Shown here piece by piece: positions 2,841-48,332 of a DNA stretch of 64,000 bases. The DNA is from Aurantiochytrium sp. KH105 (taxonomy: Eukaryota; Sar; Bigyra; Thraustochytrida; Thraustochytriidae). Both the position numbers and the translations under genes were made by a program. The stretch covers positions 248,001-312,000 of the forward strand of contig BGKB01000067.1 in assembly GCA_003116975.1 (NCBI GenBank), in the 5' to 3' direction. Below the pieces are notes generated by a model. The model was not told where the DNA came from. It did no database searches and saw nothing but the letters and a program-made list of their open reading frames with translations. How positions within the stretch are numbered: position 1 is the stretch's first letter; the number at the start of each line of letters is the position of its first letter.

Positions 2841-4187
2841 TCAGGTCGCTCCTCTAGCCCGAAGCTTCTCTGCAGCAGCAGCAGCTCTACCAACGATCTT
2901 TGCGTCGGGTAGAGGACTATAGAATACTGTCGTGACGAACTTCTCCTTGTAGCGTTGCGTGACGCCAAGAACCATGAGGTTCTCCTTGATGGCGCTGCAG
3001 TACAAATGATTCAGCGTGACATGCTCAGGGACCTGCATGGACTTTGCCACGAGACAGTCGTCGGTTTGAGGCGTGTTGAGAATGATGTGCCGCAAGTGCG
3101 GGGGCAGCGGGGGAGGCTCTTTGGCGTACCACTGCGGGTCCTCCGGGTCGGGGTGGAAGTTACCGTACAGGCTGTCGTCGGTGATGTGGTCTTTGTTATG
3201 CAAAGACTTCATGTCTGCTCCATATGTCTCCTTGAAGTCGCTGAGGTCTACAAAGTTGTTAATGTTCCCATAAGGGTCGGCGACAGTTGGCTGCTCGGGC
3301 GCAAATCGCCACTCGTCGTCGACAATGAATTTGTAGGCGTGCTTGCCTCGCTTGAGTTCGCGAATGTACAGAAAGTCGTTCCCTGACCTCCTCATGGGGA
3401 TCTTCTCCGTCCAACGGTTGAAGGTCCCTGTGATGTACACGTTGCGGCCGCCTCCGTCCCAGCGAAATACCATGGGGATCTTGTCGTCCCTTTCGAGCTC
3501 GGCGAGCAGTTCGTCGACCTCTTCTTCGCTAATGTTTGTCCCAGACATCCGCGAGGCGTTCTCGATTTGCTCGCGGTGCGCGGGGGACTGTGCAGGGCGC
3601 GGCGCAGATGATGCAGCGTCGGATTCTTGCGAGTACTGCTGTTGCTGCTGCTGATCTTGCGTGCCGGTTCCAGTGCCTCCGTATTCGCTGTTGTTCGAGG
3701 TTGAGGTGGGATTCGTATCATACATTGTCTTTGCGTTTCCGGAGGACGACTGCGTCCTGCCGTCTGTCTGCCCTGCGTTCTTTTCGGGCGCTGATGACGA
3801 GGCCGATGCGGGGTGATGTGGCGGGTGCGCTGCTGATGACGCACCCTGGCCGTGCGCAGACCCGCTGCTTCCTTCTCCCCGAGCTCCTCCCTGATCTCGC
3901 TTGCCTGCGGCGGTCGGCGCGGCGGCAGCGGCAGCAGCAGGCGCTGGCGAGGCTGCTGTCGACGCCGCCGCCGCCGCCGCCGCCGCCGTCGCGTGCGGGT
4001 CCTGCGAGGCCCTCGCCGGGCTGGACTGCTTGTTCGCAGGGCGCGGGGCGTTGCTGGCAGCCGCCGTCGAGGCGCTGCTGGCGCCCGCGGACGTGGAGGG
4101 CCTCCTCCGCGAGCTCTCGAAGCGCGGTCTCCCGTTCTCGCCCAGGCCCAGGCCGGCCTCGTCCTCCTTGCCCACGAGGTTCCCCAT
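2841..4187 (-). CDS. AMPK/SNF1 kinase beta subunit, N-myristoylation signal
   Basis: Scaffold and glycogen-sensing subunit of the AMP-activated (SNF1) kinase trimer. The start is set at the ATG giving MGNLVGKE, a good N-myristoylation sequence. The frame stays open upstream but is GC-rich, of poor quality and contains an undetermined base. The 448-residue product has a low-complexity Ala/Ser/Gln-rich N-terminal half. A CBM48 glycogen-binding domain follows at about residues 236-313, with motifs FRWDGGG, GTFNRW and DPYGNINNFVDL. An ASC domain lies at about 352-440, with PPPLPPHLRHIILN and NHLYCSAIKENLMVLG, where it would contact the alpha and gamma subunits. About 20 extra Ala/Arg-rich residues follow the usual family end. 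The gene is head to head with ion-channel gene 1, and a cluster of CACTTGCG-type motifs lies in its upstream region. Confidence 0.9.
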   Translation of the reverse strand: MGNLVGKEDEAGLGLGENGRPRFESSRRRPSTSAGASSASTAAASNAPRPANKQSSPARASQDPHATAAAAAAAASTAASPAPAAAAAAAPTAAGKRDQGGARGEGSSGSAHGQGASSAAHPPHHPASASSSAPEKNAGQTDGRTQSSSGNAKTMYDTNPTSTSNNSEYGGTGTGTQDQQQQQQYSQESDAASSAPRPAQSPAHREQIENASRMSGTNISEEEVDELLAELERDDKIPMVFRWDGGGRNVYITGTFNRWTEKIPMRRSGNDFLYIRELKRGKHAYKFIVDDEWRFAPEQPTVADPYGNINNFVDLSDFKETYGADMKSLHNKDHITDDSLYGNFHPDPEDPQWYAKEPPPLPPHLRHIILNTPQTDDCLVAKSMQVPEHVTLNHLYCSAIKENLMVLGVTQRYKEKFVTTVFYSPLPDAKIVGRAAAAAEKLRARGAT

Positions 4188-4389
4188 GGCGCTCCCGCGC
4201 GGCGGGCTCGCGCGGGCGAGCTGGCGCTGCCTCGGCTGCGGCTGCGGCGCGCCTCGATCCGATCTGGTTCGAACTCGCCTCGCGCGGCTCCGGCGCGGCG
4301 CGGCGGGCGCGGCGGGCGGGCGGGCGCNGCGAGAATCGGAAATTGCAACCAGGCGGCCTGGCGGCTCGAGCTTGATAGCGCGAAGCGGA

Positions 4390-4690
4390 AAACGCACTTG
4401 CGGGGCCCGCGCGCAAGTGCGCCAAACGCGCATGACCCACTTGCGCAGCGCCGCGCAAGTCGCCCGAGTTCGGCCCCTGCTGCCGCCCGGAAGAAGGCCT
4501 TTCGACCGCGCGCGCAAGTCGTGAATGCGCCCATGCGCCACTTGCGCCGCGGGTGTTCCCCACTTGCCGGGGCGCTCCCTCTCTCTCCCTTTCCCCCCCC
4601 CCTCCCCCACACACAGGCCCGCCCTGGCCGCCAAAGTTCACTTGCCCGCCGCGCCCGCAAGTGGGATAAACGCTTTGCCGCACTTGCGCG
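4390..4690. promoter_or_regulatory. Cluster of CACTTGCG/CGCAAGTG motifs upstream of the AMPK-beta gene
   Basis: About ten copies of CACTTGC followed by G or C occur in 300 bases on both strands. Examples are 4395-4402, 4412-4419 (reverse), 4438-4445, 4539-4546, 4561-4568, 4639-4646, 4656-4663 (reverse) and 4681-4688. CGCAAGTC variants lie near 4454 and 4513. They sit 200-500 bases upstream of the AMPK-beta ATG. This is most simply a clustered transcription-factor site. An E-box-like CACTTG core is visible, but the factor is unknown. Confidence 0.5.
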
Positions 4691-5349
4691 CCCGCGCCTA
4701 CGAAGCGAAGGCGACAGACGCATGGGTTCCCCGCGTTCCCCACACTTTGCACGCACTGCAGCCGTTTCGATGACGTCTTCCGGCGGTTGGGAAAACTGGT
4801 TCGTAACGGCGCGCTGGCAGCCAAAATCGAAGCGACCTACTGTACCCCGCTCTACCAGTGCCGATGCGCTCGCAGCTGCAGCGAAAACCCGCTTCCTGGT
4901 GGCCAGCAGCAATGTGCACGGCATGACTCGCCAGGTATACTATGATCGATCTTGATCAAGGTGATGATGAAAGCCGATCTCGCGCGTCACGATGTGTCGC
5001 CAAAGTTCGTCAGAACTTGAGCAAGAACTTGTCCGACATGGATTTGGACTTATTGACGGAGGAAGGGGTGGGAGGGGCAATGAGGGGTCCTCGCCCAAGA
5101 GCCGTCCTTGAAGACAGGCAGAGGACACGACGCTACGGTGAGCCCGCTCTGACGACACTGCGCTGAGCCCGCGCGCAAAGAGGCCTCAGCCGCTTGGGCC
5201 GGCGGACGACCATACCAAAACGAAAACTTGGAAGCGGGACGCAGAGTTCTAGGCATAGACATAGATTGTCACGTCAGCGCAACACGCAAGAAGAGAGACT
5301 GGCGACGAGCAGCACGAGTCGTCCTTGAAAGCACGACCTAGGCGGAAAG

Positions 5350-7240
5350 ATGGCAGAGGCCCTTGACAAGCTGGAGTGTGGCGCGAATCAGAACTCAAAT
5401 CCCAACCTTCCGCCCCAAGGGCAAATTGATGCGGTTATGTCTCATTCATCGAGCGCCTTCCCTCCAATCGCTCGGGCGTGCGAAGAACCGACGACTTCTG
5501 GATGCTCAGGCCCAGCATTGCAAATCGATGCGGAAGACACCGAAGGGCTAGAAGAAGCACAGCATCAAGATCAAACCTTACTTCCCGAGAGCCCAAACTC
5601 TTCCGAAAATTCGGAGCTCCCTGAAAGTGCACCTGGTGACGCCACAGCGTCCCAGCCCGAACGCAACAACACGAATGCAGACGCTTCGGCTCCTTATTTG
5701 CCATCCATGCATATCGATGATCGTCTTTGCGATGGCCTCTCTTCATATCCTTCCAGCGACGAAGAGACGCTACCTCGAGATTGCAAAGGATTGGCGCCAG
5801 AGGCACCCAACAACACCGATGCCAATGGAAATGTTCATTCGTGTTAACATCCACGACGTCTGCTCGATCGACGCCAAGAACCAAACATTTACGGCGAACA
5901 TGTACTGGCAAGTCATGTGGTTTGCTCCCGAAAACTTTATGAGAGATGATCCCGTGAAGGTCGCGCTCGAAGAAGCGTTCGACCCGCGTGTGCACCTTGC
6001 CAACCTTGTTCGCGACTCTTCTTCGGCAATTCAGACCTGGATCGAGTTTGGCAAGGTGGAAACGGGAAAGCACTCGGGCCGAAAGGTGGTGTTTCGCCGG
6101 CAGAAGCTCGTCGGTGCCGTCTTTCGCTCGCAATACAATCTAGAGCGTTTCCCTCTCGACACGCAGACGTTCGACATCGAGCTTCGATGCGACTTCCCAT
6201 CAAACGTTGTGAGCCTGCAGACTCTGAAGCCATTCACGGTCGACCCAAAGCACGACGAGCATGGAAACAGTGTAAGCTTCGCAAAGCCGTCCAAATTTAC
6301 GACCTCTAATGAATTTAAGTGGTTCAAGAATCTCACGGCCGTGACCTCCTCAGACAAGCAGTCTAAAAATTCCTTTGGCAAGATTGTGTTTCGCCTCATG
6401 GGAGACCGTAGACCAGGATTCATCACGATCAACGTGCTCATTCCGACTTTTGTCCTCACAGGTCTGGGACTTGTTGTATTTGCCATTCAACCTGAAAAAC
6501 TCGCGGCTGACACTCTTGCAGATGCTAACGCTACTGCCGCTGCACTATCTACTGCCGCTGTACTGGATCAAGAGAATGCCAACTTCGAAAGACGATTCAA
6601 TGTCAACTGCGTCTTGCTTCTCACGCAAGTCACGCTCAAATTCTCGGCGAGCGTTAGTCTTCCCGAGGTCTCATATCCAACCTTTGCAGACTACGCGGTC
6701 ATAGCCGGGGTTTTGTTTCAGTCTTGGCTCATCATTTGGACAGCAATTATCAAGACGCAGACAAGTTGGGAAAGAGCGACATTTCACGATCACAATTGCA
6801 TGTGGGCGTCCGCGGCACTATTTGGTCTCGTCACCATTGTCATTGTGAGCATTACAATTTACAAGTGGTGCACATTGGGCCACGTCAGACCTGAGAAAGC
6901 TAAAAATATCAACCGCAGCGATGAATCCTCGAACGAGGCGGATTCTACATCAGAGCAATCCATTGCGAGCGAAGCCAGATTTGAGAACGATCGCGGGGAA
7001 AGTGACAATTCCGGGAACTTCGGCGAGTTCTTCAGGGGTAGAGACCCCAAACTTTGCAAAAAATGGTTAAAGAACAGCTGCTTGGCAAATGCTTTCGTGA
7101 AATTTGTCTATTGGCTTCTCCCCGTGTCTGCATTGACAAAGGAAGAAGTTGAAATGAAGTGTACTCACTGGAGCATTCCTCTCGAGACGGAACCAGAACG
7201 CCCCCAAGATGGTTTTGAAGAAGAGATTCGGGATGAGTGA
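5350..7240 (+). CDS. Pentameric ligand-gated ion channel (Cys-loop receptor superfamily) 1, apparent frameshift
   Basis: Predicted membrane channel of the pLGIC fold. The family hallmark FPLDTQTFDIE (near 6150-6185) lies in the extracellular beta-sandwich. M1 begins RRPGFITINVLIP (about 6405-6490). M2 with the M2-M3 linker reads LLLTQVTLKF...LPEVSYPTFAD (about 6610-6690), followed by M3 and M4 (about 6690-6870). The two cysteines that give the superfamily its name are absent, as in bacterial members. The N-terminal 135 residues are acidic, Ser/Pro-rich and show no signal peptide; a 120-residue acidic tail follows M4. The reading frame must change once near 5764-5768. The part before this point (5350 onward) and the part after it both align with channel 2 (YLPSMHIDDR against YMPSILIDDR, then MFIRVNIHDVCSID against MWIRVNVFDLCSID). 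This could be a one-base sequencing error or a real lesion. Confidence 0.8.
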
Positions 7241-7423
7241 AAGCGCTCATGTTAATTCTGGCGACAGCACGGCCAAAGATAAAGTCATGCGCTTACATAC
7301 CCAAAGTAAATGAAAAGAAACTGAAATCAAAATGTTAGAGTTCTCTTGAGCAACTTGGCAGAATGATGATTTTGAACTCGGAAAAAGCTGGTCTTGCAGC
7401 TTGGTTTGTCCGCTTTCGTGGAA

Positions 7424-8377
7424 TTAGTTGACCTCCACGGAGCTCGTGAGGTCCAGGACGTTGTTAAAGGACCCGTAGGGATCGGGGATCTTCGGCTGAT
7501 CGTCAGCAAACTGCCACTTGCCGTCAACGAAGAACTTGAACTCGTGCATCTTGCCATGCATGAACTTGCAGCTGTGCTCGAAGCTGCCATCGGCCAACTT
7601 AGTCATTGGCTCTTTTCTCCAATCATTGTGGGTTCCCGCAATGCATACCTCGTTGCCACCTTTGCGCCAGAGAATTGCCGTTGCTAGCGCGTGGATCTGG
7701 TCGTTGATCTCGCTCGCCTTTTCGGAACAGTCACGGAGATCCATCATTGACTCGTTGGTCTCCTCTTTGGTCTCCTCAATGATCTCCTTGTCCGTCTCCT
7801 CAATGGCCACCTCGTCCGTCTCCTCAACGGCCTCCTCGGACGTCACGCTGGCCTTCTCGGAAACGCCATCCAGGTCCGTCTCTGGTTCACAGGTCTTGTC
7901 GTTACCCTCGCTGGCCATCTCACAGTCAACGGGCTTCGAGACGTTCTCGGAGGGTCCACAGGGGACCGGGTTCTTCGCCGGCACGCGACGAATTGTCACC
8001 TTGCTGTTCACGGTAGTAGTGCGCTGGACCTCGATCTCGTCTTGTTTAAGGTTGCCGCAATGCGGGCAGGTGTCGGAGACTGACGTGGCCATGGGGACTT
8101 CCTCGTTGAGAGCATTGGCGTTGCGATCATTGGCATTAGCATCAAACATGTTGACACCTTCGATCGAGCAAATTGGGTACTCTTGTTCCTCCTTGGGCTT
8201 GCCGGTCGAGGCGTTGCTTTGATCTGGATATTTCTTGCTTTGAGTTTCGGGTTTGCTTTTGCCATGGCGGCTGGCGGACGGCCAGCCCCTGCTTTTTCCT
8301 TTCCGGAGTTGCTTGCTGCAGCTCAAGGCGATCCCTTTAGCAAGGACTTTTATGCGGCTTGTCGCGCCGCCTGCCAT
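7424..8377 (-). CDS. CBM48 (AMPK-beta-type glycogen-binding) domain protein
   Basis: The 317-residue protein carries a single E-set/CBM48 domain at its C-terminus (about residues 232-312) with AILWRKGG, GTHNDW, FFVDGKWQF and DPYGSFNNVLDL. These align closely with the CBM48 domain of the AMPK-beta gene at 2841-4187. There is no ASC domain, so it is unlikely to act as a normal AMPK scaffold. The N-terminus is basic and contains a CPHCG pair near residue 105 that could bind zinc with other ligands. The middle is an acidic repeat of EETDE/EETKE units (about residues 175-215). It is read away from channel 2, mirroring the AMPK-beta/channel 1 arrangement. Substrate and partner are unknown; binding of a storage glucan is an inference from the domain. 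Confidence 0.75.
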   Translation of the reverse strand: MAGGATSRIKVLAKGIALSCSKQLRKGKSRGWPSASRHGKSKPETQSKKYPDQSNASTGKPKEEQEYPICSIEGVNMFDANANDRNANALNEEVPMATSVSDTCPHCGNLKQDEIEVQRTTTVNSKVTIRRVPAKNPVPCGPSENVSKPVDCEMASEGNDKTCEPETDLDGVSEKASVTSEEAVEETDEVAIEETDKEIIEETKEETNESMMDLRDCSEKASEINDQIHALATAILWRKGGNEVCIAGTHNDWRKEPMTKLADGSFEHSCKFMHGKMHEFKFFVDGKWQFADDQPKIPDPYGSFNNVLDLTSSVEVN

Positions 8378-8829
8378 GTCGTACAGCTTGGGCTGACTCT
8401 GAGGAGTGGGTTCGGATTCTGCTCAAATTAGATGCAGATTTAGTGCTCCAGTTCTCCAGTTCGCGGTTCCCGGTGACATGGCCTGGCTGGAGGACAAATC
8501 GTGATAAACGGACTGTGGCCTATAAGAACCTTCAAAAGGCGAGTCGCGTCGCACGCTATACTTGGAATTCGGCTTGAGTCTCGTGATGGTTGGCGGCGGC
8601 CTTTCGTTCCCATGATTTTTACTTGCAGTTCCAAATCGAAGAAATGAGACGACATTCATTCCCACTCTCCCAACTCTCCAATGGTCGAAGGCATCCCCTT
8701 GAGTTCGGCAGTAGGAAAAAAAATGTTACCATACTGGAAGCTGCGCGCCCCATCACTGTAGTTCGGCGAGAATCATAAACGTGATATTGGCCGCCTGCCG
8801 CTGGCCGGGAGCCGCGCCGTCACTGTCTG

Positions 8830-8871
8830 CCTAGTACTACTTCGTAGCCTAGTACTACTTCGTAGTACTAG
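8830..8871. repeat. Direct repeat overlapping a 10-bp perfect inverted repeat
   Basis: The 18-base unit CCTAGTACTACTTCGTAG occurs twice in tandem (8830-8847 and 8848-8865). The second copy with the following TACTAG forms a palindrome, 8849-8871, with 10-bp arms around a TTC spacer. It lies in the interval between the divergent CBM48 and channel 2 genes, about 460 bases upstream of the channel ATG. It is a candidate protein-binding site or hairpin. Confidence 0.55.
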
Positions 8872-9329
8872 AGAATGGACCCGCGAGACCTAACAGTAAG
8901 GCGGCGTCCGCGACACGCGCCCCGGCTCGAAGGCACGCGCCGCACGACGCAAAGCTGGAGAACGACGCAGAGCCCGCGCCGGACCGGAGGGCAAGGGCGC
9001 GGCAGGGGCGCGGGAGGGAGGGAGGGAGGGAGGGAGGGAGGGAGGGAAGCGCAGGAGGCCTGGAGACGCAGCCACTCGCGACCCGCGAGCGCGCATGCGC
9101 CCACGCGTGTCGGTCCGGGCCCTCGCGGACATCGTCCAGGCGGCCTCGACCGTGCGACGCGCGAGGAGGCCTGCTCACTGGCAGTGCGAGCTGCAGGCGG
9201 GCGGGCGGGCGGGCGGGCCATCGACGACGAGTAAGAAGACGATAAGGAGGGAGCCCGTTCCCCCTTGGTCCTGTTGCGGCGAAGCTGCAGCTGCAAACAG
9301 GGGCGTCGCAGCAAGAATCGAGGGAGACG

Positions 9330-10904
9330 ATGTCGGACGCGATTCGCGTAGTCGTTAAGCCACCCGAGAACACCATGAATGAGCGCTCCGTCGCTCCTGC
9401 GTTCTCAGATGATAGTCTGATTGAGGACGTTCCAGATGTGCAAACAGAAGCTGAAGAATACGAGACCGATCGAAGCTGTGTCAATTCATACTCATCTGCG
9501 TCGAACGTGGCTTCATTATCGCACATGCCTTTATCACAGTCCACGCCACAAGAGACCAACTTTGAGAATTCCGAGGAGGTGTACATGCCAAGCATCTTGA
9601 TCGATGATCGTGTAAAGCCTGGGATCAAGAGCTTTCCCAAACGTTCAAGTGACGAAGCGAGACTTCTTCGCGCCGCTCTCAACGTCAAAAAGAAGCAAAG
9701 TGGCCACCAGAATCAGGGGCACGCGAGAGAACGCACACACGAAATGCCGACCATGAAGATGTGGATTCGCGTCAATGTCTTTGATCTTTGCTCAATCGAC
9801 ACCAAGAATCAGACTTTTACAGTGAATCTTTATTGGGAGGTCGCCTGGGAGGCACCAAAAAATTTTGATGAAGAGAACGAAGCCATGCTCGCTCTTGAAG
9901 AGCGATTTGACTCTCGAGTGCACCTTGGAAATCTCGTGAATGACGCAAGCGGGAGCCTCTATTCCTGGGTTGAGGTCGGCAACGCCGACTATAAAGAATT
10001 TGAAGAAAGGAAAAAGAGAGAGGGCAAGGAAGAAGATATACAGAAAGCAAAGGAGAATGGGCCGAAACAAGGTGCACAAATGATATTCCAGAGAAACAAA
10101 ATCACCGGTGCCGTCTTTCGCATGCGATGTGACTTGGGGCAATTTCCCTTTGACACGCAAGGTTTCGACATCGAGTTTCGGACAGATTACCCTCACAACA
10201 AAGTTGAGCTCATACCTAATCGTCTCAAGCCTTCCATGGCCAAACCATCTTCGTTCACAACCTCGAATGAATTTGCTGTGCTGCCTCGCATTGAGGTTTT
10301 TCTGGATGTTGACCAGCACCTGGGTTCTTTTGACAGGATTGTCTTTCGACTGACCGGAGACCGCCGCCCGGGATTTGTCACTTTCAACATCTTTCTACCG
10401 ATGGTCACAATATCGGGCCTCGGCCTAGTTACCTTTGTCATCCAGCCACAAACCGAAGTCGATCGCAACGAAAACTTTGAACGGCGATTTAATGTCAATT
10501 GCGTATTGCTTCTTACGCAAGTCGCTTACAAATTCTCCACGAGCGCCAATATTCCGGAAATCTCGTATCCGACATTTGCAGATAGAGTTGTCCTTTTGGC
10601 AATGGGTTTTCAAGCCGCTTTGATCGTGTGGAGCGCTAGTCTCAAGCGTTTTCCCACCATGGACCAGACACGTCAAGCGGATTCTTTGGCGCTAGCCGTC
10701 TTTTCTGTTTTCTACGGTGCTTTTGCTCTTTGGCTGTTCGTCTTTGCTGCCGTCAAGTGGACTACAGCGGGTGAAGTGCAGGACTTGGCAAAGTGCAAAT
10801 GCCTCACGAAATTTGTTCATTATTTTCTGCCTAGCAAAGTTCGAGAGCCCAGATTCCCAAAGGGAAGCGCCCGACAAACACCTTACATGACCATACAACT
10901 ATGA
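9330..10904 (+). CDS. Pentameric ligand-gated ion channel (Cys-loop receptor superfamily) 2
   Basis: Intact 524-residue paralogue of channel 1. A Ser/acid-rich N-terminal region (residues 1-140) precedes the beta-sandwich ligand-binding domain (about 145-340), which has the FPFDTQGFDIEF hallmark near residue 272. M1 begins RRPGFVTFNIFLP (about 345-370). M2 and its linker read LLLTQVAYKF...IPEISYPTFAD (about 388-420), then come M3 (about 422-445) and M4 (about 453-478). The M3-M4 loop is only about 10-15 residues, as in prokaryotic channels and unlike the long loop of animal receptors. Cys-loop cysteines are absent. A Lys/Glu-rich insertion (about residues 224-250) interrupts the extracellular domain. 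No signal peptide is visible from this start. Ligand and ion selectivity cannot be read from the sequence. Confidence 0.85.
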   Translation: MSDAIRVVVKPPENTMNERSVAPAFSDDSLIEDVPDVQTEAEEYETDRSCVNSYSSASNVASLSHMPLSQSTPQETNFENSEEVYMPSILIDDRVKPGIKSFPKRSSDEARLLRAALNVKKKQSGHQNQGHARERTHEMPTMKMWIRVNVFDLCSIDTKNQTFTVNLYWEVAWEAPKNFDEENEAMLALEERFDSRVHLGNLVNDASGSLYSWVEVGNADYKEFEERKKREGKEEDIQKAKENGPKQGAQMIFQRNKITGAVFRMRCDLGQFPFDTQGFDIEFRTDYPHNKVELIPNRLKPSMAKPSSFTTSNEFAVLPRIEVFLDVDQHLGSFDRIVFRLTGDRRPGFVTFNIFLPMVTISGLGLVTFVIQPQTEVDRNENFERRFNVNCVLLLTQVAYKFSTSANIPEISYPTFADRVVLLAMGFQAALIVWSASLKRFPTMDQTRQADSLALAVFSVFYGAFALWLFVFAAVKWTTAGEVQDLAKCKCLTKFVHYFLPSKVREPRFPKGSARQTPYMTIQL

Positions 10905-13227: not shown

Positions 13228-13971
13228 TTAGGCGCTCCCCTCGGGTGCGGCTGCGCCATCGACATCTGATTGTGGCTCATAAACTTCGACTTCCTGATTT
13301 GAGGCATGCTCCAAGGCCGCGAGTGCTGCCTTGCGCTGCGGAATGGCCATCTTGAACTTGACTGGTTTCGTAGAGGTCAAGCATGGCTTTGTGAAGGTCT
13401 TTGCGTAGGATCGGTAGTGCTTGAAGAACGTTGCAGATGCTTCGTCAATAATCTCCACGACCTGAGGAAGCGAAAAGAGTGCGCTCCCAACAATGGGAAC
13501 AGCGTGCATGCGAACCATCTTGGCGAACGTGCGATAGCTTTCTTCCAGCACGAGCGGACCGCTTTCATTCACCTCAAAGAATGAGCACATCACGCACTCT
13601 TTCATGAGCGAGACATAGACGGACGTCTGAGCCGGAGACCACGTTTTGTCCACCGCAAATCGATAAGACACAAAAAGCAGGTCCAGAAAGACATCCTTGT
13701 AGATCATGTCGGTGTCTGTGCTCTTGGATAGCTGCGGAAGGTCAATGATCGACCGGAGCATTCTGTAGCAGGCAGGTTCGTGCTGGGTTAGTGAGTCACA
13801 CGAGGAATATAACGTTGTCTTGCGTTGACGCGCGCGTGCGCGTGCGCGTGCGCGTGCGTCTGCGTGTGCGCGTCAGTGAACTTACTCGAACTGTTCTTTC
13901 GGCGATGCTTCACATCTCTCGAGCGCCGCGAGGTCCTCTTCACTAAGATCCTTCCACAGCATCGTGTCCAT
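13228..13971 (-). CDS. CFAP119/CCDC189-like cilia- and flagella-associated protein, two exons
   Basis: Exon 1 is 13971-13886 (MDTMLWKDLSEEDL...) and exon 2 is 13762-13228. The intron (13885-13763) has donor GTAAGT, a CTAAC branch-like site and acceptor CTACAG, and the join keeps the frame. The product is about 206 residues. Resemblance to vertebrate CFAP119 (C16orf93/CCDC189) is seen in the order of an LPxL segment, a central helical region ending in SLMKECV, and FFKHYRSYAKTFT near residue 150. This recognition is from memory and moderate. A flagellar role would suit a zoospore-forming protist. The intron contains a CGCGTG repeat. An in-frame ATG at 14079 could extend the N-terminus with Arg-rich sequence, but the start at 13971 is preferred. 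The gene is head to head with COG2, with 583 bases between their start codons. Confidence 0.55.
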
Positions 13972-14554: not shown

Positions 14555-17306
14555 ATGTTCACGGACGAGGTCTTCCTGCAGGAGGGCTTTCGGGCCGATG
14601 CGTACGTAGCTTTATGGGGGGGGAGCCCGCGTGGCGAAGGCGCGAACCTTGAGGGCGACAACGACGGTGGTGGGAGCGCCCTTCGTCTGGCCCACGACGA
14701 CACGTGAGCGCTCGCGTGCAAGCTGTGATTACTTGCCGCAAAGTCGGGAGGGTCCTGGCGACTTGAAGGAGTGATCGAAGGCATGAATTGATGACTGACT
14801 GACTGACGGTGATCGCCACCCGACCCACACATCCATCCATACATCCATCCACTCGCCCACACGTGCACCGCACACGTCAACGCACAGCTTTGTCGCGGAA
14901 CACCGCAAGGACCTGACCTTGAAGAACCTCGAGAGCGAGCTGGAGGCCTATGTCGCCAACTTGGACAACACCCTCGTCAACATTATCAACAATGACTACT
15001 CAGCCTTTCTCAAACTCTCGAGCATGCTCGTTGACATCGACTCCCTCGTGGCCGGACTGCGTGAACCATTGACCCTGCTCGAGCGCAAAGTGCAAGACGC
15101 CCGCAAGGTTGTAAGCGATCCGCTCGAAAAGCAACGCGCGCTTCTCGATCGTCTCTTGTACGTTCGCGAGAAACGCAAGCTCATTCAACTCTGCCTTTCC
15201 GCGTGGGAGACCCTCGAAAAAGTCGAGCGTCAGGTCGAGCAGTTACGCGCAGAAGACGATCAAGACCGTGGCTCCACTATCACGCCATCCGGAGCGGATC
15301 CCATTCCCGCGAACAAGAGTGGCAGGATTACCCCTACCACCTCGCTCACAAGCGCCACAGCTCCGACTCACTCGATTGCGGACGCTCATGAAAATCCTGC
15401 TGAAAGTCGCGGGGACACGGACACACATTCCCACGCGCAAGACGCAAGTCTTGCAAGCCCCGCCAGCGTCGCCAGCGCCGCATCTTCAACAAAGCCCGAC
15501 ATGACTGGTGGTCCGTCTCCCGACCTACAGGATGCTGCGGCCAGTGCAAGCGGCTTTACCACAGCTGGTAAAAACGAGACCAACGGCGAAGCTCTCGGCA
15601 GAGCGACGCAGCGCCTTGCGCGCGTCACTTTTCTCGCTCAGGAAAACTCCGGCTTGCCTCTTTTGCGCATGATTCGCGCCAAGGCTCGCAGCCTCGAGCA
15701 CTCGCTCATCGAACAGCTTGAATTAGCCCTCGTTCAGGTCGTCGGTCCAGACGGTTTTGCTGAGCAGCGGACCACGAACGAAGTCGATCAGGCTCGCGTA
15801 CGTCAGATCGCAGTAGTTCTTCGCGCCTACATGGCCATCAATCATACTCAGGAGGCAACTGAGGTCTTTCGTCGCCGCGTCGTGCAGCCTTCCTTGCAAA
15901 AGATCCTCACGCAGGGCCGCATTGATGCCGGCGGCGCCCGAGGCATTGCGAGCGGTTTGCAGGGAGCGTACGGGGACGTGCTCCGCTTCTTACAAACGAC
16001 GTGCCGGCCAATGCTTGCGGCAATCCATGATCCAAACGAGGGCCTTGCAGATATTGACCTTCTTGGCTCGAGCGTCGTCGAAGGCCTGGCACAGGTTATC
16101 AAAGATCAAATGTCCTACGTATACTCGAGCGGTAACGCTGACGTCTTGCACGCCACCTACCTCAAGACAGAGGCGTTTTTCCGCATTCTCCGCTCGCTTG
16201 CTCCACACCCTGAGCGAGTGGACCACGTGGCAGACCGCGTTCTCGCCATGTGGAATCTGTCTGTGTACGCGCAACTTCGGTCCCAGGATATGACCCGCCA
16301 GCTCGAAGAGGCTCTCGTCGTTTTGACAACCAACGAGGATTCGCACGGCGACGCGACGCACAACCTTAGGTTACCGGCGTCAATTGCGCTCGTAAACTGT
16401 TTCGAAGAGTGCTGGAGCGAAAAGGTGGTCCTGTCAGGAGTGGCAGCGCGCATTTTTAAGCTTGTGGTGCAGTTGGTGTTCTCGTATCTGGCATGGTCTG
16501 AGGCCTCAATCCGTTTCGTAGCCAGCGAGAACGATGTGACCCTTTCAATGCCTTCGGAAGAGGAAGCTGCCTCTGAAGAGCTGCGCGAGGCTGCTGACGC
16601 GCGCGCCGCGGCTGCTGCGCAGGCATGGGGTGACGCCCCGTGCAACAAGCTCATTCTTCTTTGCGTGGATAATCTTGCAATTGCATCATTCCTCGCAAAT
16701 CAAGTTCCTCGTGTACAAGACGTTGTCGTCGGTCGCGCTACAGGCTCTTCGCAAGGTGCAGCGGCGAAGGAGGCCGTGCAACGGGCAATCAATGAACATC
16801 TCGGGCAAGAACTTTGTCATGCCGCAGCGCGAGCACGTCGTGTCGTGGAACAGAGCGTGCTCGCGCAGTGTACGGAAACCGTTCTTGCCGGCATGAAGGG
16901 CGTCACACCCATGTACCGCATGACCAACAAGCCACCCCCCACGCAAGCGTGCGAGTACGCCGCCAAGACGCTCGAGCCTGTCGAAACGTTTTTGGCGAGC
17001 GAGCCCGCGCAGCTTCTTGACAATGCACCCGCGAGCGCCGCAACGATTCTGGAAAGCGTGTTGGTTCTCTTTGACGAGCAGGCTTCGCGCGCTCTGGAGG
17101 AGATCACCACCTCCGAAAACGCGCTTCGCCGACTCAACCGCAACACCGGCAAGCGCCAGCTCGATTCAACCAAGATTCGTGCGCAGTTCTTTCTTGATCT
17201 CGAGCGTATTGTACAGTCTGCTCGGCAAGCTGGGGTCGATGTCGATCAGGTCCAGGGTTACAGCGAATTGCGCGCAAAGCTTGCGCCAACTGCATCGTCA
17301 TCCTAA
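14555..17306 (+). CDS. COG2: Conserved oligomeric Golgi complex subunit 2, two exons
   Basis: Subunit of lobe A of the COG tethering complex, which captures retrograde vesicles at the Golgi. Exon 1 (14555-14601) encodes MFTDEVFLQEGFRAD, and exon 2 runs 14888-17306. The intron 14602-14887 has donor GTACGT and acceptor CACAG, with a phase 2 join giving A-FVAEHRKDLTL. The N-terminal region NNDYSAFLKLSSMLVDID (about residue 55) matches the COG2 family signature helix for complex assembly. The rest is helical, with a Ser/Thr/Ala-rich low-complexity insert around residues 135-225 that is longer than in animals. Total length is about 821 residues against about 740 in human. The stop is TAA. The intron carries a GACTGACTGACT repeat. 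Confidence 0.88.
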
Positions 17307-21111: not shown

Positions 21112-24100
21112 CTACAGAGGATTGAGTGACCGTCCGCGATGCGAGTTTGTGGAAATCGAGGAACGCGCAGTGCCGGGAGATTTGGGCGACTTAAGGTCGC
21201 GGGCCGTTGGAGATTTGCGGTTCATCATGCTCCCTGCTTTGCTTGTCTTCCTTCGCACCGACGGCAAAGGGGCAATGGTCTCCACACTGGGGCTGGGCGG
21301 CGCCTCGGCCTTCTTCTCAAAGTGATACGTTGTCCTGTAGACCCTGTCAAGGGGGAGAGCCGGAGTTGATGCAGAAGTAGAAAGAGAGAGCTGGGGTTTG
21401 TTGCGTCGAATGCCCGCAGGAGCGCTTGCAGACTGTCCTAGGGTTTTTGTCGATGACGAGTCTGCATTCTTGCGCTCTGCATCAGACGAATCGTTGTTGC
21501 TGATATTGTTATTACTTTGCTGCCGTTCCTCTCCTTCTTCCTCATCGCTATTGTTGTTGCCGCATTCATTATTACTGCTGTTGCTGCTGCTGCTGCTATC
21601 TTCGCTACCATTAGAGGCCTCATCAGGCGTCTTTGGCTTGACCTCAGGGTTCTCGCTAGCCTCCTGCGCTTCCTTATCCGAAGGATCCTCGTTTCCATCA
21701 CCAGCATTTGAGCTTGCGTCTTCCGAACAGGTCTTTGCAAGCTCATCATCAGGTCCCTCCACAACGGAAGCGTGGAATATACGGCCAAAACAATAAAGAA
21801 TGTCCTTGTTCTCTCGGACGGCCTCCATGAACTCAGAAAATGTGACGACACCATCATGGTTAATGTCGAGCGAGCGCAAGAGCTCAATCGCTTTCCAGCC
21901 GTTATCCTGCATACTCAGCTGCGATGCATAGAGGAATTCAAAGAATTCCTGGTAATCGACGGACTTGCTGCAGTCCGAGTCAAAGAGCTCAAAGTAAAGC
22001 TCACCTTTGGCTTGGATATGGGCCGGATCTTCTGTGTCAAAGGTCCGAGAACGCTCGAGCGCAAGTGCCATGCCAATCAGCATCTTACGCAGATCAACCT
22101 CCTCCTCACCAGGAATCACCAGGCCATCTTCGACGTCACGCGCCGGACAGGTGATGAGCGCCACCCGAAACAAATTCAGCAGAACAGTGTATACCAGCTC
22201 GTCCGAGGTTGTGGCAACATCCATTGAGAGATCTGCCTGGGAACGGTCGGTGAAGTCAAAATATGAATGACTGCGACTCGTCATCGTGTCTTTTGGTGAA
22301 AATGCCGACCCTTCCCAGAATGGCTCAATGAAATACACAAAGCGCTCCCAGTTGACAAAACAGAACTGATCCCGGTTGCGGCCCAGACGGCGCCAAGCAT
22401 TAAGAATACTTTCAATGCCAAAGTGGGGAACGGCGCGAAAAAGCTTCATCGTCCAAACGGCTAGATCTTCCGGGGGCTTGAGGCATTCGTCAAAGCTGCT
22501 GAGTATGGAGGGAATCTCGGCCACGGCGCGCTCGAACTCGTGCTTTTCAACAGAACCATTCTTGTCGTAGTCCATCATCGTAATGATCAGCTCGACGAGG
22601 TGAGCGCATTCCATGAGCTCATTGTTGGTGTCTTGCACGAGCTTGACAAGATCAACGAGCCGCATACTGCGCTCATTTTCAGGCTTTTGCAAGGCCGCAG
22701 CCGCCTTACGAGCCGCCTCACGTGTCGCGGTATCCGCTGCGTCCCGCGAGGCGCTGTTGGTCGCGGCGACGTCACCGCCGTTGCCGTTGTCGCTTTCTAA
22801 GTTTTGTGGCTGTGTGACTGCTGTAGTCGCCCGTCCACCTGCCTTGATCTTGCTCACAGCTTGTGTCGGGTTCGCCGCGTTGGCCACGTCAAAGAGGAAG
22901 CGCGCCTTTTCTTCAAGTGACGCAGACGTGAGACGGCTCACACCAATAATGAATTCGTCAAAGTTGATCATGCCGTCACGGTCGCGATCAAAGAGAACAA
23001 ACATGCGGGCGAGGACGGCGGGGCTTGTGATGCTGGGGAACTGCGTGTGCATGACGGACGAAAATTGGTCCTTTGTGAGTCCCTTCTTTGTAGACTTGGC
23101 ATTTGTCCAGCTTTTGCGCAAGGCAACGAGGTCATGGGTCTCGAACTTGGCGATTGCTGCAGCCGCCTCTGCGTCTTCAGTCGCGCACATGTCTTCTAGG
23201 TCCTCCTTTGTCAGTGCACTGCCAATCTTGGCCTCGGCCTCTGCAATGCTTGCCCTGCGTTCGTTTGCGGCGGCAAGAGCGGCCTCTCTCGCATGTCCGA
23301 TGGGCGCGGATTGGGTCACGCTTGCTCTGGCACCACCAGGCATGGCGTTTGCGACACCTAGGATGGGCGACTTGCCTGCCGCATTGGTCTGTCGGCCGTC
23401 CACCACACTTCCCCGCTGACGAGTATTTGTTTGGCGGACGGCTCCAAGGGCTGTAGTGCGCCCTCCGTTGCCCGCATCGGGTGCACTCATTGCGTTGACG
23501 AGCTTGCGCGCCTCGCGCTTCATGATTGTACCAGCATTTTTGATATCTGCATTGCTACGCAAGAGGCTGTATTGGGAGGCCTTATTCTTTTCGGCGGCGA
23601 GCACAATGCTGGCAATGGCCTGGACGTCCTCGTTAGATGCAAGCCAGTCGCCGAGAAGCTGTGCACTCACTGTCTGGCACTTCCTCCAGGCACCTTCACC
23701 GCAAATGCGGCCTGCAAGCTGCATCACGAATGCCGGGGGTGCGCGTTTGACAAGGACTCCGAGACGGAAGAGACCGCGCTGCATCGTGAGCAAGAGCTGC
23801 GCAATACGTTCTTCAGTCATACTTGGGCCGAAAAGAGGAAAGCAAAGCTCGAGACGCTCCGACGTCGTCGTGCCCTGCGCGACGAGGGCCAGAAGACAGA
23901 ATACCTCCCGCAAGTCTACAATGCCCGATTCTTCTTGCTCAAAGTACGCAAAGATGTCCAGCGGCAGCGCGAGAAACTCGCCATTCTTGACGAGCGAGAA
24001 GTCGTAGTCCGTAAAGACCTCCCAAAACTGTCTTCTTCCCACGAGAAAGGTGCTCGTTTCCTCGTACAGGGTTGCAAAGCGCGCGCGAGCTCGCTTGAGG

Positions 24101-24261
24101 TCTGCGAGGTTCCACCGCGACGCCTGCTTCACGAACTCGCGCCAATGGCGTGGAGGTTTGTTCCGCTTCCCTCCACTTCCGTGCGTCTCGCCGCCTGCTT
24201 GTGCCTGCTGACGACTGCCCGTGAGCGCCGCCACGGCATCTTGCGAGTAGGTCACCCCCAT
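21112..24261 (-). CDS. Large multi-EF-hand calcium-binding protein, possible N-myristoylation
   Basis: The 1049-residue single-exon protein starts MGVTYSQD, which fits an N-myristoylation site (Gly2, Ser6). EF-hand loops are visible at about residues 423 (DRDRDGMINFDE), 562 (DYDKNGSVEKHE) and 797 (DINHDGVVTFSE), all with canonical ligands. A fourth at about 757 (DSDCSKSVDYQE) lacks the position-6 glycine. Further degenerate EF-like helices occur near residues 100-150. The C-terminal 200 residues are disordered, Ser/Asn/Glu-rich and end in a basic Ser/Pro-rich tail. No kinase or catalytic domain was found. It is likely a membrane-associated calcium sensor or scaffold, but the role is not known. 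A CGCAAGTG motif (24391-24398) lies 130 bases upstream of the start. Confidence 0.8.
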   Translation of the reverse strand: MGVTYSQDAVAALTGSRQQAQAGGETHGSGGKRNKPPRHWREFVKQASRWNLADLKRARARFATLYEETSTFLVGRRQFWEVFTDYDFSLVKNGEFLALPLDIFAYFEQEESGIVDLREVFCLLALVAQGTTTSERLELCFPLFGPSMTEERIAQLLLTMQRGLFRLGVLVKRAPPAFVMQLAGRICGEGAWRKCQTVSAQLLGDWLASNEDVQAIASIVLAAEKNKASQYSLLRSNADIKNAGTIMKREARKLVNAMSAPDAGNGGRTTALGAVRQTNTRQRGSVVDGRQTNAAGKSPILGVANAMPGGARASVTQSAPIGHAREAALAAANERRASIAEAEAKIGSALTKEDLEDMCATEDAEAAAAIAKFETHDLVALRKSWTNAKSTKKGLTKDQFSSVMHTQFPSITSPAVLARMFVLFDRDRDGMINFDEFIIGVSRLTSASLEEKARFLFDVANAANPTQAVSKIKAGGRATTAVTQPQNLESDNGNGGDVAATNSASRDAADTATREAARKAAAALQKPENERSMRLVDLVKLVQDTNNELMECAHLVELIITMMDYDKNGSVEKHEFERAVAEIPSILSSFDECLKPPEDLAVWTMKLFRAVPHFGIESILNAWRRLGRNRDQFCFVNWERFVYFIEPFWEGSAFSPKDTMTSRSHSYFDFTDRSQADLSMDVATTSDELVYTVLLNLFRVALITCPARDVEDGLVIPGEEEVDLRKMLIGMALALERSRTFDTEDPAHIQAKGELYFELFDSDCSKSVDYQEFFEFLYASQLSMQDNGWKAIELLRSLDINHDGVVTFSEFMEAVRENKDILYCFGRIFHASVVEGPDDELAKTCSEDASSNAGDGNEDPSDKEAQEASENPEVKPKTPDEASNGSEDSSSSSNSSNNECGNNNSDEEEGEERQQSNNNISNNDSSDAERKNADSSSTKTLGQSASAPAGIRRNKPQLSLSTSASTPALPLDRVYRTTYHFEKKAEAPPSPSVETIAPLPSVRRKTSKAGSMMNRKSPTARDLKSPKSPGTARSSISTNSHRGRSLNPL

Positions 24262-24899
24262 GTCGCTCGCTGCCTTGCGAGTGCTCGCTGCTCCCGCTCT
24301 TGCCCTCGCTCGCTCGCTCGCTCGCGCAAGTCAAGTCAAGTTTGTCGCGGCGGGCCGCGAGAGAGTCGCGGATTGCCGATCGTCCACGCACGCAAGTGGT
24401 ATGGATTCGCGCTCACTGTCGGTCTCAATCCTCCAGGCACTGATTGCTCTGCACTCTAAGCGCGTCCGCGCCGTCGCCGCAGCCAAAACGTGAACGGACA
24501 CGAGTCCGCGCGCGCACCCCCCCCTCTTCCTCTTCCCTTCCTTCTGACCAGAAGCAAGCGTGTAAGTGTGGGGAAATAGTCACAAGCAGTCGGGAGACCG
24601 GCGCCGGAGGGAAGGGGAGAGAGACACTCTGTGATGGAGCGCGCGATTGAAGCGTCGCGAAAGTATTGTGCTTGCGAAGTGAAAGGTGCTTGGCGCGATG
24701 GTGGCGAGGCTTTTTGTGCGATACGGAGCAAACAAGAAGAAAGAGAGGTCGGACACGAGTTCATCGAGTGGTGGGAGACGGTCTCCCCGGTTTGCTGCCT
24801 AGATGAATAATCTACAGAGAGAGAAATCAAGAATTGAGAGCAGAGAAGAAGTGATGAAGTTCGCTTTCCCTTTCAGAGCGGAAGGCAAGGCAAGATAGT
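24262..24899. other. Intergenic region between the EF-hand and Rad17 genes
   Basis: This region contains the 5' flank of the EF-hand gene, with CGCTCGCTCGCT repeats near 24305 and a CGCAAGTG motif at 24391. The rest is the 3' flank of Rad17. No gene was recognised. Confidence 0.5.
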
Positions 24900-36672: not shown

Positions 36673-39390
36673 TCAGCGCGTGAAAAGCTGCTCGGTGAAC
36701 TTGACGTAGTCGCCGTCGGACATGTTGCCCTGCAAATAGGAGGCGAGATCAGCGTCAATGGCGCCAAAGTTCTTTTGAATCTGTTCAGAGGAAAGCGAGC
36801 CCTCAGGAGCAATGGCCTTGAAGGCTTCGACAACGTCATCCTTGGAGTCGCCCGACTGGAGCTCGTCGACGAAAAAGGCAATGAAATCATCCTGCGTGAA
36901 CACCATCGTCGACGAGCGCGCTCGCATGCGGGACTCCAGCTCCTGATCATCGAGATCAATACCCGCGCCGAGGCAAGCCTCGCGCAGCTCTGAAAGGCGG
37001 AGCTTGCCATCATTGTCGGTATCAAAGACGCTAAAGATCTCTTGAGCCTCCTTGAGCTGCTCCGGCGAGATTTGCAGCGACTTTTGCGCCATAAGCTGTG
37101 CAGAAATAGCCTCATCAGCACGCTTCAGATCCTTGAGCAGCTGCTCGTGGTTGGAGCGAAGCGAAAAGATCGTGTGCGTCGTGTACGTGTTAGCCACGAG
37201 CTCGGCCTCCTCGCATGCCTGCGAAGCTTCTTCGAGCGCGGTAAGCTTAGCGGCGCCCGCCGAGTCCTCGCCAGCGACCTCGCTGCGCAGCTTGGCAATG
37301 GCCTCCTTCTGGTCGTCAAGGGACCCGGAAACACCGCCCAGGGCAGCGCGCTGGCCGTCGCAAAAGCTGGCAAACTCGTTGGCGAGACCCGCAAAACGCT
37401 GAGACAGCTCGTCGCGCCGCTGCTCGGCCGCCAATACAGAGCCCAGGTCGCTCTGCAGCGAGTTCACCTTGCTCTGCATCGACTCGATACGGCTGCGCTG
37501 CTGCGCGCAGTGATCCTTGGCGTCCGGCCGCTTGCTCTCAATCTCTGCGGCAAGGGCCGAGACCTCATCGACGCTCGTCAGCGCCGCCTGCACGCTTTGC
37601 TCAATCGATCCCATCTGGCCCTGGAGCTCGGTCATTTCCGCAGTGGTGGCGCCCGTAATGTCCTCGCTCAGGCTCTGATCAAGCTGGTCCACGAGGAAGT
37701 CGAGCTCGTTGATCTTTTGCAGGTAGAGCTTGTCCTTGGCCGCCAGCGCCTTCTCGGACTCCAGCGCCGACTCTAGCGCAGAGCGGTGGCTCTCGCCCTG
37801 GGACTTGCAGGTCGACATCTTCTCGTCGAGATCGCGCATGCCCTGGCTGGCATCTGCCACACCCGCGTGGCCCTCGCTGGTCTCGGCCTTGGCCACAATG
37901 GCGCGGAGCTCCTCCATCACGGTGTCATAAAGTTTGAGACGACTTTCGTAGCTCGCGTGCATCTCAAGCTCGGTTTCGAGCTCAGAGACAGAGCCGCCCT
38001 TGACGCCTTCCCCAAAGACGGCAAGCTTTTCGTCGAGCCACACGTTCACCGCCACCGACTTGGCCTTGAACTTGGCCACAGCATGATCCGCCATGCGGTA
38101 GCTGAGGTAGCGATCAAGCATTTGCCGCTCATACGATTGCTCGGCGTGCTCGAGGCTCTCCCAGGCTGCACCGAGGTCTGCCGGCGGGATCTCGGCCGAG
38201 AACTCGGGTCGGTTGTTGTTCCGCTTGCTGCTCACGAGTGTCGTGTAGACACCTTCGGCCTCGGCGCGTTTCGATGCCATCTCGGGCTTGACGTTGTTCA
38301 TGTACGTGTTGAAGTCGTCGAGGGCCGCCTTGACATCATCGGTGGCGCTCAGCGCTGGCGCGTTCTCGAAGCGGCTCTTGTTGCTGCTCACAAAGTCCTG
38401 CACCTCCTTGCTCAGCTGCGTGTACTGGTTCATCCAGTCATCGTGGCGCCGGGTTACCGCGACAGCGTTCTTGACAGCCCGAAGCTTGGACTCCAGCTTG
38501 GCCTGGCCTGCAAACAGCTTGAAGAACTGGCTCAGGTACGCCACTTGCGACTTTTCATCGGGGTGCTCGACCACGTCCTCCGGGTCCAAGAGTCGGGCGA
38601 TGCCCAGCTTGTCCTCGGCGATGGAAAAGGCCTGTTCACAGTTCGCCAGGCCTTCTGCGGGCGACAGCCCATCGAACTCGAGCAGATCAGGGCGATAGCG
38701 ATGAATGAGCGCATTAAAGGCGAGGCCATCCGTCCAGGACGAGGTGAAGTCCTTGACGTCCACATTCGTGTAGCCCTTGGTGGAGCGCTGCAGCCACAAG
38801 AGAAGACCGGCCTTGCCGTCGGCGCCGCTCACCTCAAAGCGCAGAATGATGGTCCACAGGAGACCGAGCACGAGCTTTTCGTTGCCCTTGAGGATATCCG
38901 AGGAACCAATGTTTACCAGCGGAATGTCGTGGTCGCGGATGAACTTGAGGCACTGGTTCAGGTTCTCGAGCTTTTGAATGTCCATTTTGGGCTTGCTGTT
39001 GATGCGTCCTACATTTTCGTCCGAGATGCGGCCCAAAAGGGACGCAAGGACGGTGCCGTCCGCAAGGTCAGGCACCAGTTCCTCGATCTTGTTCCCGGGG
39101 GGAAGATACTGGTTCGCCCTGCGCAGGTAAAAAACAAAGAAAAATAGGAGGATTGTCGTGATATCAGACAGACCATCCATCACACACAAGGTTTGTCCGG
39201 TTCCGGTTCCGGGCACGTCCCGTCAGTTTCCGATATTCTTTTGTCGCGACAATAAAGACGAAAAGAGAGAGAGAGAGTGTGCAACGCGCCTTGACGCTGC
39301 GCACGAGCGCCCAACTTACCATCGCGTGAATGTCTTGCGCTGGATTCCGATCCAGGCCTCGCGGTCCTCGTTGTTGTGCACGCGCGACAT
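36673..39390 (-). CDS. Alpha-actinin, two exons
   Basis: Actin crosslinking protein. Exon 1 (39390-39320) encodes MSRVHNNEDREAWIGIQ..KTFTR, and exon 2 is 39118-36673. The intron 39319-39119 (GTAAGT to CGCAG) joins in phase 2 to give TRWANQYL inside the first actin-binding helix. The 838-residue product has two calponin-homology domains (about residues 8-120 and 130-230) and a spectrin-repeat rod (about 240-700). Two EF-hand pairs follow from about 715. The first loop DTDNDGKLRLSE is canonical for calcium; the others look degenerate, as in many calcium-sensitive actinins with one working site. Length is slightly shorter than vertebrate actinin (about 890). It is head to head with the adhesin-like gene at 40025. 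Confidence 0.93.

Positions 39391-48300: not shown

Positions 48301-48332
<32 letters not shown>

What the first reader, a model, noticed from the sequence alone, without database searches (positions are those of the whole stretch)
2841..10904. Twice-repeated head-to-head module: CBM48 gene plus pentameric ligand-gated channel
Two minus-strand genes with related AMPK-beta-type CBM48 domains each lie divergently next to a plus-strand pLGIC gene, and the two channels are clear paralogues. The order is CBM48(-)/channel(+) then CBM48(-)/channel(+). The simplest reading is tandem duplication of a divergent pair, after which one CBM48 gene remained the AMPK beta subunit and the other lost its ASC domain. 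A persistent link between a glucan/energy-sensing domain and a ligand-gated channel would be new to me. Functional coupling is inference.
Basis: partly seen in the sequence, partly recalled or inferred. Interest (0 to 1): 0.75.

Follow-up and report, generated by a model that had tools for sequence, protein, structure and literature searches.

The report
Duplicated AMPK-beta and channel gene pair
In a single-celled protist, two neighbouring genes (a subunit of the energy sensor AMPK and a nerve-receptor-like channel) were probably copied side by side once; the closeness itself looks ordinary, but the channels of this kind that were found in the genome lack a recognisable export signal, which would be unusual if confirmed.

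Summary
The order is real: AMPK-beta (2841-4187, -), channel 1 (5350-7240, +), CBM48-only gene (7424-8377, -), channel 2 (9330-10904, +). A second copy of the locus (contig C145, 91-96% identical, probably the other haplotype) has the same order. Correction: channel 1 of the window has a 2-base frameshift that C145 lacks. One tandem duplication of a divergent pair is the best reading: ABAB order on strands -+-+, sister channels (100/100), and the only AMPK-type CBM48 genes found in the 76-Mb assembly. A persistent link is not supported: six other intact channel genes at five places, and a pseudogene copy of channel 1, have no such gene beside them. No glycogen phosphorylase or CBM_48 enzyme was found. 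No related species could be searched. More interesting: 8 of 8 intact channels lack an N-terminal hydrophobic stretch and have C-tails of 46-119 residues, whereas 6 of 6 prokaryotic relatives have a signal-like stretch and 0-2 residues after M4. Net charge is inverted at every window tried in 6 of 8, but it is ambiguous for the two channels in the window. A cytosol-facing ligand domain is an open possibility, not a result.

The parts
2841..4187 (-). AMPK beta subunit gene: MGN- start (myristoylation type, recalled), low-complexity N-tail, CBM48, ASC domain
   Evidence: Pfam AMPK1_CBM 2.5e-31 and AMPKBI 5.3e-25; human AMPK beta-1 E 1e-43 over CBM and ASC; against C145 0 of 12 substitutions in CBM+ASC change the protein
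4188..5349 (.). divergent intergenic stretch of pair 1 (1162 bases); no convincing motif shared with pair 2
5350..7240 (+). channel 1 (Cys-less pLGIC); the window's copy has a 2-base gap near 5763 that shifts the frame; the C145 copy is open throughout
7424..8377 (-). CBM48-only gene: CBM48 at the very C-terminus, no ASC domain; N-tail under no visible constraint; start unsure
   Evidence: Pfam AMPK1_CBM 1.4e-18; no AMPKBI there; CBM48 1 of 5 substitutions nonsynonymous, P 0.006; N-tail 21 of 26, P 0.66
8378..9329 (.). divergent intergenic stretch of pair 2 (952 bases)
9330..10904 (+). channel 2 (Cys-less pLGIC), open on both contigs, 524 aa
   Evidence: 96% identity to C145; 22 of 36 substitutions nonsynonymous, P 0.017

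Best explanation
An ancestral divergent pair, AMPK-beta (-) and a Cys-less pLGIC (+), was duplicated in tandem once. One CBM48 copy stayed the AMPK beta subunit; the other lost its ASC domain and is now a CBM48-only protein that cannot assemble as a beta subunit by that domain. The two channels diverged to about half identity and are both under purifying selection, so each is probably a working subunit of a pentameric channel. The neighbourhood is a by-product of segmental duplication; no functional coupling of CBM48 and channel is needed. Shown: order, homology, constraint between the two copies of the locus, and that no other AMPK-type CBM48 gene was found in this genome. Inferred: a single event, loss of ASC (rather than gain), channel function.
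For: ABAB order with strands -+-+ on both contigs. Channels 1 and 2 are sisters with 100/100 support, 49% against 17-21% to the six other intact channels. PF16561 was found nowhere else in the genome (4 of 4 hits in this locus). The CBM48-only domain is nearer to the local AMPK-beta (42%) than to human beta-1 (33%). Constraint on AMPK-beta, on the CBM48 of the CBM48-only gene and on both channels. Copying of channel genes is seen elsewhere in this genome: a pseudogene derived from channel 1 and a second neighbouring pair on C95.
Against: The two intergenic stretches share no convincing sequence, as expected for an old event but also for independent events. CBM48 identity (35-42%) is lower than channel identity (49%), so equal age has to be rescued by faster change in the ASC-less copy. 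The CBM48 comparison has no outgroup. On C95 the two neighbouring channel genes match only over about the coding stretch, so neighbouring copies need not come from duplication of a whole segment.
Confidence: 0.62

Rival explanations
1. Independent events: the channel duplicated locally, and the CBM48-only gene arose or was inserted between the copies on its own, from AMPK-beta or from another CBM48 source.
For: CBM48 domains differ more than the channels; the CBM48-only protein scores about equally to the local AMPK-beta (54.5-55.4 bits) and to human beta-1 (50.3 bits); no convincing shared intergenic sequence.
Against: It needs two or three events to give the alternating order and strands that one tandem duplication gives; no other CBM48 source was found in the genome.
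Confidence: 0.22
2. Functional module: each CBM48 protein and its channel work together or are co-expressed from a shared divergent promoter, and selection keeps them adjacent.
For: The divergent arrangement occurs twice, with about 1 kb between starts; if the ligand domains face the cytosol, they would share a compartment with AMPK (see novel case).
Against: The two pairs are most simply one event, so there is no independent recurrence. 0 of 6 other intact channels are beside a CBM48 gene. A copy of channel 1 left without its partner, though it became a pseudogene. No convincing shared promoter words. No phosphorylase and no CBM_48 enzyme were found, so a glycogen-level signal is doubtful.
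Confidence: 0.1
3. About the side result: the channels are ordinary cell-surface pLGICs whose signal peptides are coded by short upstream exons missed by reading open frames, or which reach the surface without one.
For: No RNA evidence was available; no signal-peptide predictor was run; charge distribution of channels 1 and 2 is ambiguous, and by K+R count it is not inverted in channel 1 at any window and in channel 2 only at the longest; C-terminal additions occur in other pLGICs (PMC4795631, passage).
Against: 8 of 8 genes would need it; all eight predicted ATGs have a purine at -3 (10 of 10 with the two CBM48 genes); channels 1 and 2 have 145-164 mostly hydrophilic residues in frame before the ligand domain; the stretch upstream of the ATG of channel 2 differs between contigs by indels.
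Confidence: 0.5

Closest known systems
AMPK beta subunits (human beta-1/beta-2, yeast Sip2)
   Same: CBM48 plus ASC, MG- start; human beta-1 matched over both domains at E 1e-43; an AMPK alpha-type AdenylateSensor domain exists in the genome
   Different: No glycogen phosphorylase and no CBM_48 enzyme were found in this genome, so what its CBM48 binds is unclear
Cys-less Pro-loop receptors (pLGICs) of protists, Jaiteh et al. 2016, PMC4795631 (passages and section 7 seen)
   Same: FPxD loop, pre-M1 Arg, M1 Pro, M2-M3 Pro, basic 0', Leu 9', no Cys-loop cysteines; that paper already reports pLGICs in stramenopiles
   Different: No N-terminal hydrophobic stretch and a long C-tail in 8 of 8 here; the paper left the non-aligning ends out of its alignment, and the terms 'signal peptide', 'signal sequence', 'N-terminal' and 'C-terminal' do not occur in its main text
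Prokaryotic pLGICs (ELIC; relatives L050-L055)
   Same: ELIC is among the best PDB matches, by its pore region; six prokaryotic relatives found
   Different: Those six have a signal-like N-terminal stretch, a basic M3-M4 loop (5-7 K+R) and end 0-2 residues after M4
Plant CBM48 proteins without ASC (LSF1, SEX4; titles)
   Same: CBM48 without ASC exists in other proteins; LSF1 matches the CBM48-only protein weakly (E 0.016)
   Different: They are glucan phosphatases or relatives of these (titles; recalled); the gene here has no other Pfam domain

Membership tests
AMPK beta subunit (gene at 2841-4187) | CBM48 of the AMPK type | tested here: met
   PF16561 2.5e-31
AMPK beta subunit (gene at 2841-4187) | ASC / AMPKBI domain at the C-terminus | tested here: met
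   PF04739 5.3e-25
AMPK beta subunit (gene at 2841-4187) | binds alpha and gamma subunits | not testable with these tools
   an alpha-type AdenylateSensor domain is present in the genome; gamma not searched
AMPK beta subunit (gene at 7424-8377) | ASC / AMPKBI domain | tested here: not met
   none; so it is not filed as a beta subunit
Starch/glycogen-binding CBM48 | sugar-contact residues (Trp100, Lys126, Trp133, Asn150 of rat beta-1, recalled) | tested here: inconclusive
   these four are at the same columns in both genes by eye; the Leu146 column reads Tyr in both; binding not testable
Pro-loop receptor superfamily (channels 1 and 2) | [F/Y]PxD loop and pre-M1 Arg | tested here: met
   FPFD / FPLD; R345 invariant with six prokaryotic relatives; features from Table 1 of PMC4795631
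Pro-loop receptor superfamily (channels 1 and 2) | M1 Pro, M2 0' basic, Leu 9', M2-M3 Pro | tested here: met
   P357, R386, L395, P409 of channel 2 shared by channel 1; P357, R386, P409 invariant; prime numbers counted by hand
Pro-loop receptor superfamily (channels 1 and 2) | aromatic residue in beta-9 | not tested
   listed in Table 1 of PMC4795631; the column was not located
Pro-loop receptor superfamily (channels 1 and 2) | reaches Pfam's curated cut-off for LBD or membrane domain | tested here: not met
   21.4 and 14.3 bits against 26; a database threshold, not a defining trait; PDB sequence matches of channel 2 are significant
Cys-loop receptors (metazoan type) | two cysteines that flank the loop | tested here: not met
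   Met/Ser and Phe at these places in channels 2/1 (by eye)
Surface pLGICs | N-terminal signal peptide, extracellular ligand domain (usual, not part of Table 1) | tested here: inconclusive
   no hydrophobic N-terminal stretch in 8 of 8; an unseen upstream exon is not excluded; topology not measurable here
Pro-loop receptor superfamily (channels 1 and 2) | pentamer, ligand gating, ion conduction | not testable with these tools

The most novel reading that the evidence does not exclude
The pLGICs of this protist sit inside out: without a signal peptide, the ligand-binding domain stays in the cytosol and M1 inserts as a signal anchor, so both ends are cytosolic and the channel (in the plasma membrane or an organelle) is gated by a ligand inside the cell, the compartment where AMPK works. 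Evidence: 8 of 8 intact channels without an N-terminal hydrophobic stretch and with C-tails of 46-119 residues, against 6 of 6 prokaryotic relatives with a signal-like stretch and 0-2 residues after M4. Net charge is inverted at each of five windows in 6 of 8 (chX, chY, chZ1-4); by K+R count at each window in 4 of 8 (chY, chZ1, chZ3, chZ4) and at four of five windows in chZ2; it is ambiguous in the two window channels.
Probability: 0.22. Interest if true: 0.85.

Novelty: new variant of a known kind. Interest (0 to 1): 0.4.

Why it matters
As given, the finding is a tandem duplication with little bearing beyond this genome. It matters more for what it led to: a set of eight divergent pLGIC genes in one single-celled eukaryote, none of which shows an export signal. 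In 2016 no biological role was known for any pLGIC of single-celled organisms (PMC4795631, passage). If the ligand domains of these channels face the cytosol, the search for ligands must move from neurotransmitter-like molecules outside to metabolites inside, and a topology reversal within a large receptor superfamily would be shown. This can be tested directly with tagged proteins.

Tried and rejected
Relatives: two scans of genome contigs (none of 13 pattern matches; 6 of 92 were relatives, all prokaryotic) and two of viral contigs (none of 39 and of 135); tblastn of both CBM48 domains in plasmids (none). No eukaryotic genome other than the window's own assembly was at hand, so adjacency in relatives stayed untested.

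Shared promoter: words shared by the two divergent stretches exceed first-order Markov copies slightly at 9, 10, 11 and 12 letters (6, 8, 1 and 1 of 200 copies as high), but at 12 letters all are GGGC-type simple repeats. Not taken as evidence.

Charge rule as proof of inverted topology: not accepted for channels 1 and 2, where the sign depends on the window (channel 2: -1, -2, 0, +1, +3; channel 1: -1, +2, +3, +2, 0 for windows of 8, 12, 15, 20, 30). The flanks of M1 alone do not discriminate: several prokaryotic controls are also more positive before M1 than after. Sequons in the ligand domains are few and near shuffled expectation, chY being highest (2 against 0.6): uninformative. Transmembrane limits were set by hand. 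The eight channels fall into four families, so they are not eight independent cases; one copy of each was used. Whether the eukaryotic channels form one clade is unsure (76/86, with long branches for chX and chY).

CBM48 tree: only three sequences, no outgroup; taken as a hint.

Organism: assembly size (76.0 Mb, 367 contigs, matches in pairs) resembles the diploid draft of Aurantiochytrium sp. KH105, whose text gives 76.7 Mb in 512 scaffolds, while its table gives 86.0 Mb in 1810 (PMC5924542, passages); not proved.

Literature: searches gave nothing to the point. Passages of PMC13232294 and PMC8584932, which held the terms, do not bear on signal peptides or topology of protist channels. One search found 65 papers with at least 3 of 5 terms, 10 listed, none of these ten with a channel term; passages of PMC12221091 name no ligand-gated channel.
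Full report
What is there. The window is positions 248001-312000 of contig C67 of a 76.0-Mb, 367-contig assembly. Four genes alternate in strand: AMPK-beta 2841-4187 (-), channel 1 5350-7240 (+), a CBM48-only gene 7424-8377 (-), channel 2 9330-10904 (+). The same order lies on contig C145, 91-96% identical in the matching blocks, probably the second haplotype. Most other genes searched here also came in pairs of contigs (chZ4 is an exception).

CBM48 genes. The first has CBM48 and ASC and matches human AMPK beta-1 over both domains at E 1e-43; it begins MGN, the usual myristoylation context (recalled). The second has CBM48 at its very end and no ASC. PF16561 gives four hits in the genome: these two genes on C67 and C145. 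PF02922 (CBM_48 of branching enzymes) and PF00343 (glycogen phosphorylase) give none, although 10 and 12 of the 14 control genomes ring; introns or divergence could hide genes, but the phosphorylase profile is long. An AMPK alpha AdenylateSensor domain is present. So AMPK seems to exist, and the sugar its CBM48 would read is unclear.

Channels. Channel 2 matches nAChR gamma (9.4e-7) and ELIC (9.8e-7) in the PDB and has residues listed as most conserved in the superfamily by Jaiteh et al. 2016 (PMC4795631, section 7): FPxD, pre-M1 Arg, M1 Pro, basic 0', Leu 9', M2-M3 Pro; the beta-9 aromatic was not located. The Cys-loop cysteines are absent. That paper already reports pLGICs in stramenopiles (passage). 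Channel 1 of the window has a 2-base gap near 5763; C145 and both dispersed copies do not, so this is either a null allele or an assembly error.

Constraint. Between C67 and C145, AMPK-beta CBM+ASC has 0 nonsynonymous of 12 substitutions (P 1e-8 under neutrality), the CBM48 of the second gene 1 of 5 (P 0.006), its N-tail 21 of 26 (P 0.66), channel 2 22 of 36 (P 0.017), channel 1 body about 50 of 84 (P 1e-4) (counts, rounded; tests). Counts are small and this is one pair of sequences.

Rest of the family. Searches by protein and by PF02931 gave further pLGIC genes: chX (C19/C3), chY (C221/C43), chZ1 (C251/C249), chZ2 and chZ3 (both on C95, with second copies on C152 and C186), chZ4 (C82 only). 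chX matches nAChR beta at 7e-8 and a profile of the chZ genes matches the glycine receptor at 8.5e-7; chY was tied in through chX (E 3.5e-11). With channels 1 and 2 that is eight intact genes at six places; more divergent ones may be missed, since PF02931 itself did not find channels 1 and 2. A ninth, on C46/C86, is a copy of window stretch 4825/4857-6797 at 89-90% identity, with a frame break after M1 on both contigs and no M4: a pseudogene. None of the six other intact genes, nor the pseudogene, has an AMPK-type CBM48 gene beside it, since all four hits found are in this locus.

How the locus arose. One tandem duplication of a divergent pair gives the ABAB order and strands directly. The channels are sisters (100/100, tree of 14 without the pseudogene) at 49% identity against 17-21% to the six other intact channels. 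For CBM48 only three sequences could be compared: local AMPK-beta/CBM48-only 42%, AMPK-beta/human 46%, CBM48-only/human 33%; the CBM48-only domain agrees with the local AMPK-beta alone at 12 columns and with human alone at 5. By bit score it is nearly equidistant (54.5-55.4 against 50.3). This leans towards, and does not prove, local origin. The pairs share no convincing promoter sequence. Because both pairs most simply come from one event, they do not count as recurrence, and the idea of a persistent functional link has no support here beyond adjacency itself.

A side result. In 8 of 8 intact channel genes (one copy each) the residues before the ligand domain have no strongly hydrophobic stretch (best mean hydropathy over 11 residues -0.53 to 1.36), and the C-tail after M4 is 46-119 residues long. 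In 6 of 6 prokaryotic relatives, all that one search returned, the values are 2.36-2.89 and 0-2 residues (for L051 an inner ATG was taken as start). No signal-peptide predictor was run. The eight predicted starts and those of the two CBM48 genes, ten of ten, have a purine at -3. Net charge of the M2-M3 loop plus 20 residues of C-tail exceeds that of the M1-M2 plus M3-M4 loops in 8 of 8 against 0 of 6. With windows of 8, 12, 15, 20 and 30 residues the sign by net charge is stable in six of eight (chX, chY, chZ1-4) and wavers for channels 1 and 2. By K+R count alone it is inverted at each window in four (chY, chZ1, chZ3, chZ4), at four of five in chZ2, at one of five in chX (30) and in channel 2 (30), and at none in channel 1. 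The six controls are negative by both measures at each window. The eight are four families, not eight independent cases, and prokaryotes are an imperfect control: eukaryotic pLGICs of known topology were not at hand. An inverted, cytosol-facing topology is thus possible, best supported for chY and chZ, and undecided for the window's channels; missed upstream exons are the main alternative. Jaiteh et al. left non-aligning ends out of their alignment and do not use the terms signal peptide or signal sequence in the main text, so the point may simply not have been looked at; the paper searches made here (with passages) found nothing on it.

Verdict. Observation confirmed with corrections; tandem duplication of the pair supported; loss of ASC plausible; functional coupling unsupported and untested in relatives. 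The missing signal peptides deserve follow-up by RNA 5' ends and topology mapping.

Noticed in passing
window 5763 (channel 1): 2-base gap relative to C145, C46 and C86 that breaks the frame of channel 1 on this contig only: null allele or assembly error.
   Followed up: partly
C46 about 107767-109780 (L020/L021) and C86 177960-179912 (L022/L023): Partial dispersed copy of channel 1 with about 500 bases of its upstream stretch, 89-90% identical, frame break after M1 on both contigs, M4 missing.
   Followed up: yes
L034/L041, L042, L056, L058, L060, L062: Six further intact divergent pLGIC genes in the same genome, none with an N-terminal hydrophobic stretch and all with long C-tails.
   Followed up: partly
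L058 and L060 (C95:18326-19615 and 23417-24709): Two neighbouring channel genes match at 95.5% only over 1492-2787 of each locus, about the coding stretch; the flanks held do not match, as in gene conversion or a coding-only copy.
   Followed up: partly
window about 9582-9665 and 5692-5766 (N-tails of channels 2 and 1): A block Y-x-P-S-(3)-IDDR-(3)-G-(2)-S-x-P then SSDE-x-R is conserved in N-tails that otherwise hardly align; a candidate short binding motif.
   Followed up: no
P0001 (channel 1, C145), M1-M2 loop: Channel 1 has about 21 extra Ala-rich residues between M1 and M2, where channel 2 has a short loop.
   Followed up: no
genome G000: No hit for glycogen phosphorylase PF00343 or CBM_48 PF02922, yet AMPK-beta keeps a CBM48 with no protein change between C67 and C145: its ligand is an open question.
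   Followed up: partly
window 13228-13761, 14919-17306, 36673-39216, 47979-49943, 55161-58745: Ordinary neighbours: flagellar C1a-32 CLAMP, COG2, a CH/spectrin/EF-hand protein (alpha-actinin-like), sodium:solute symporter, formin.
   Followed up: no
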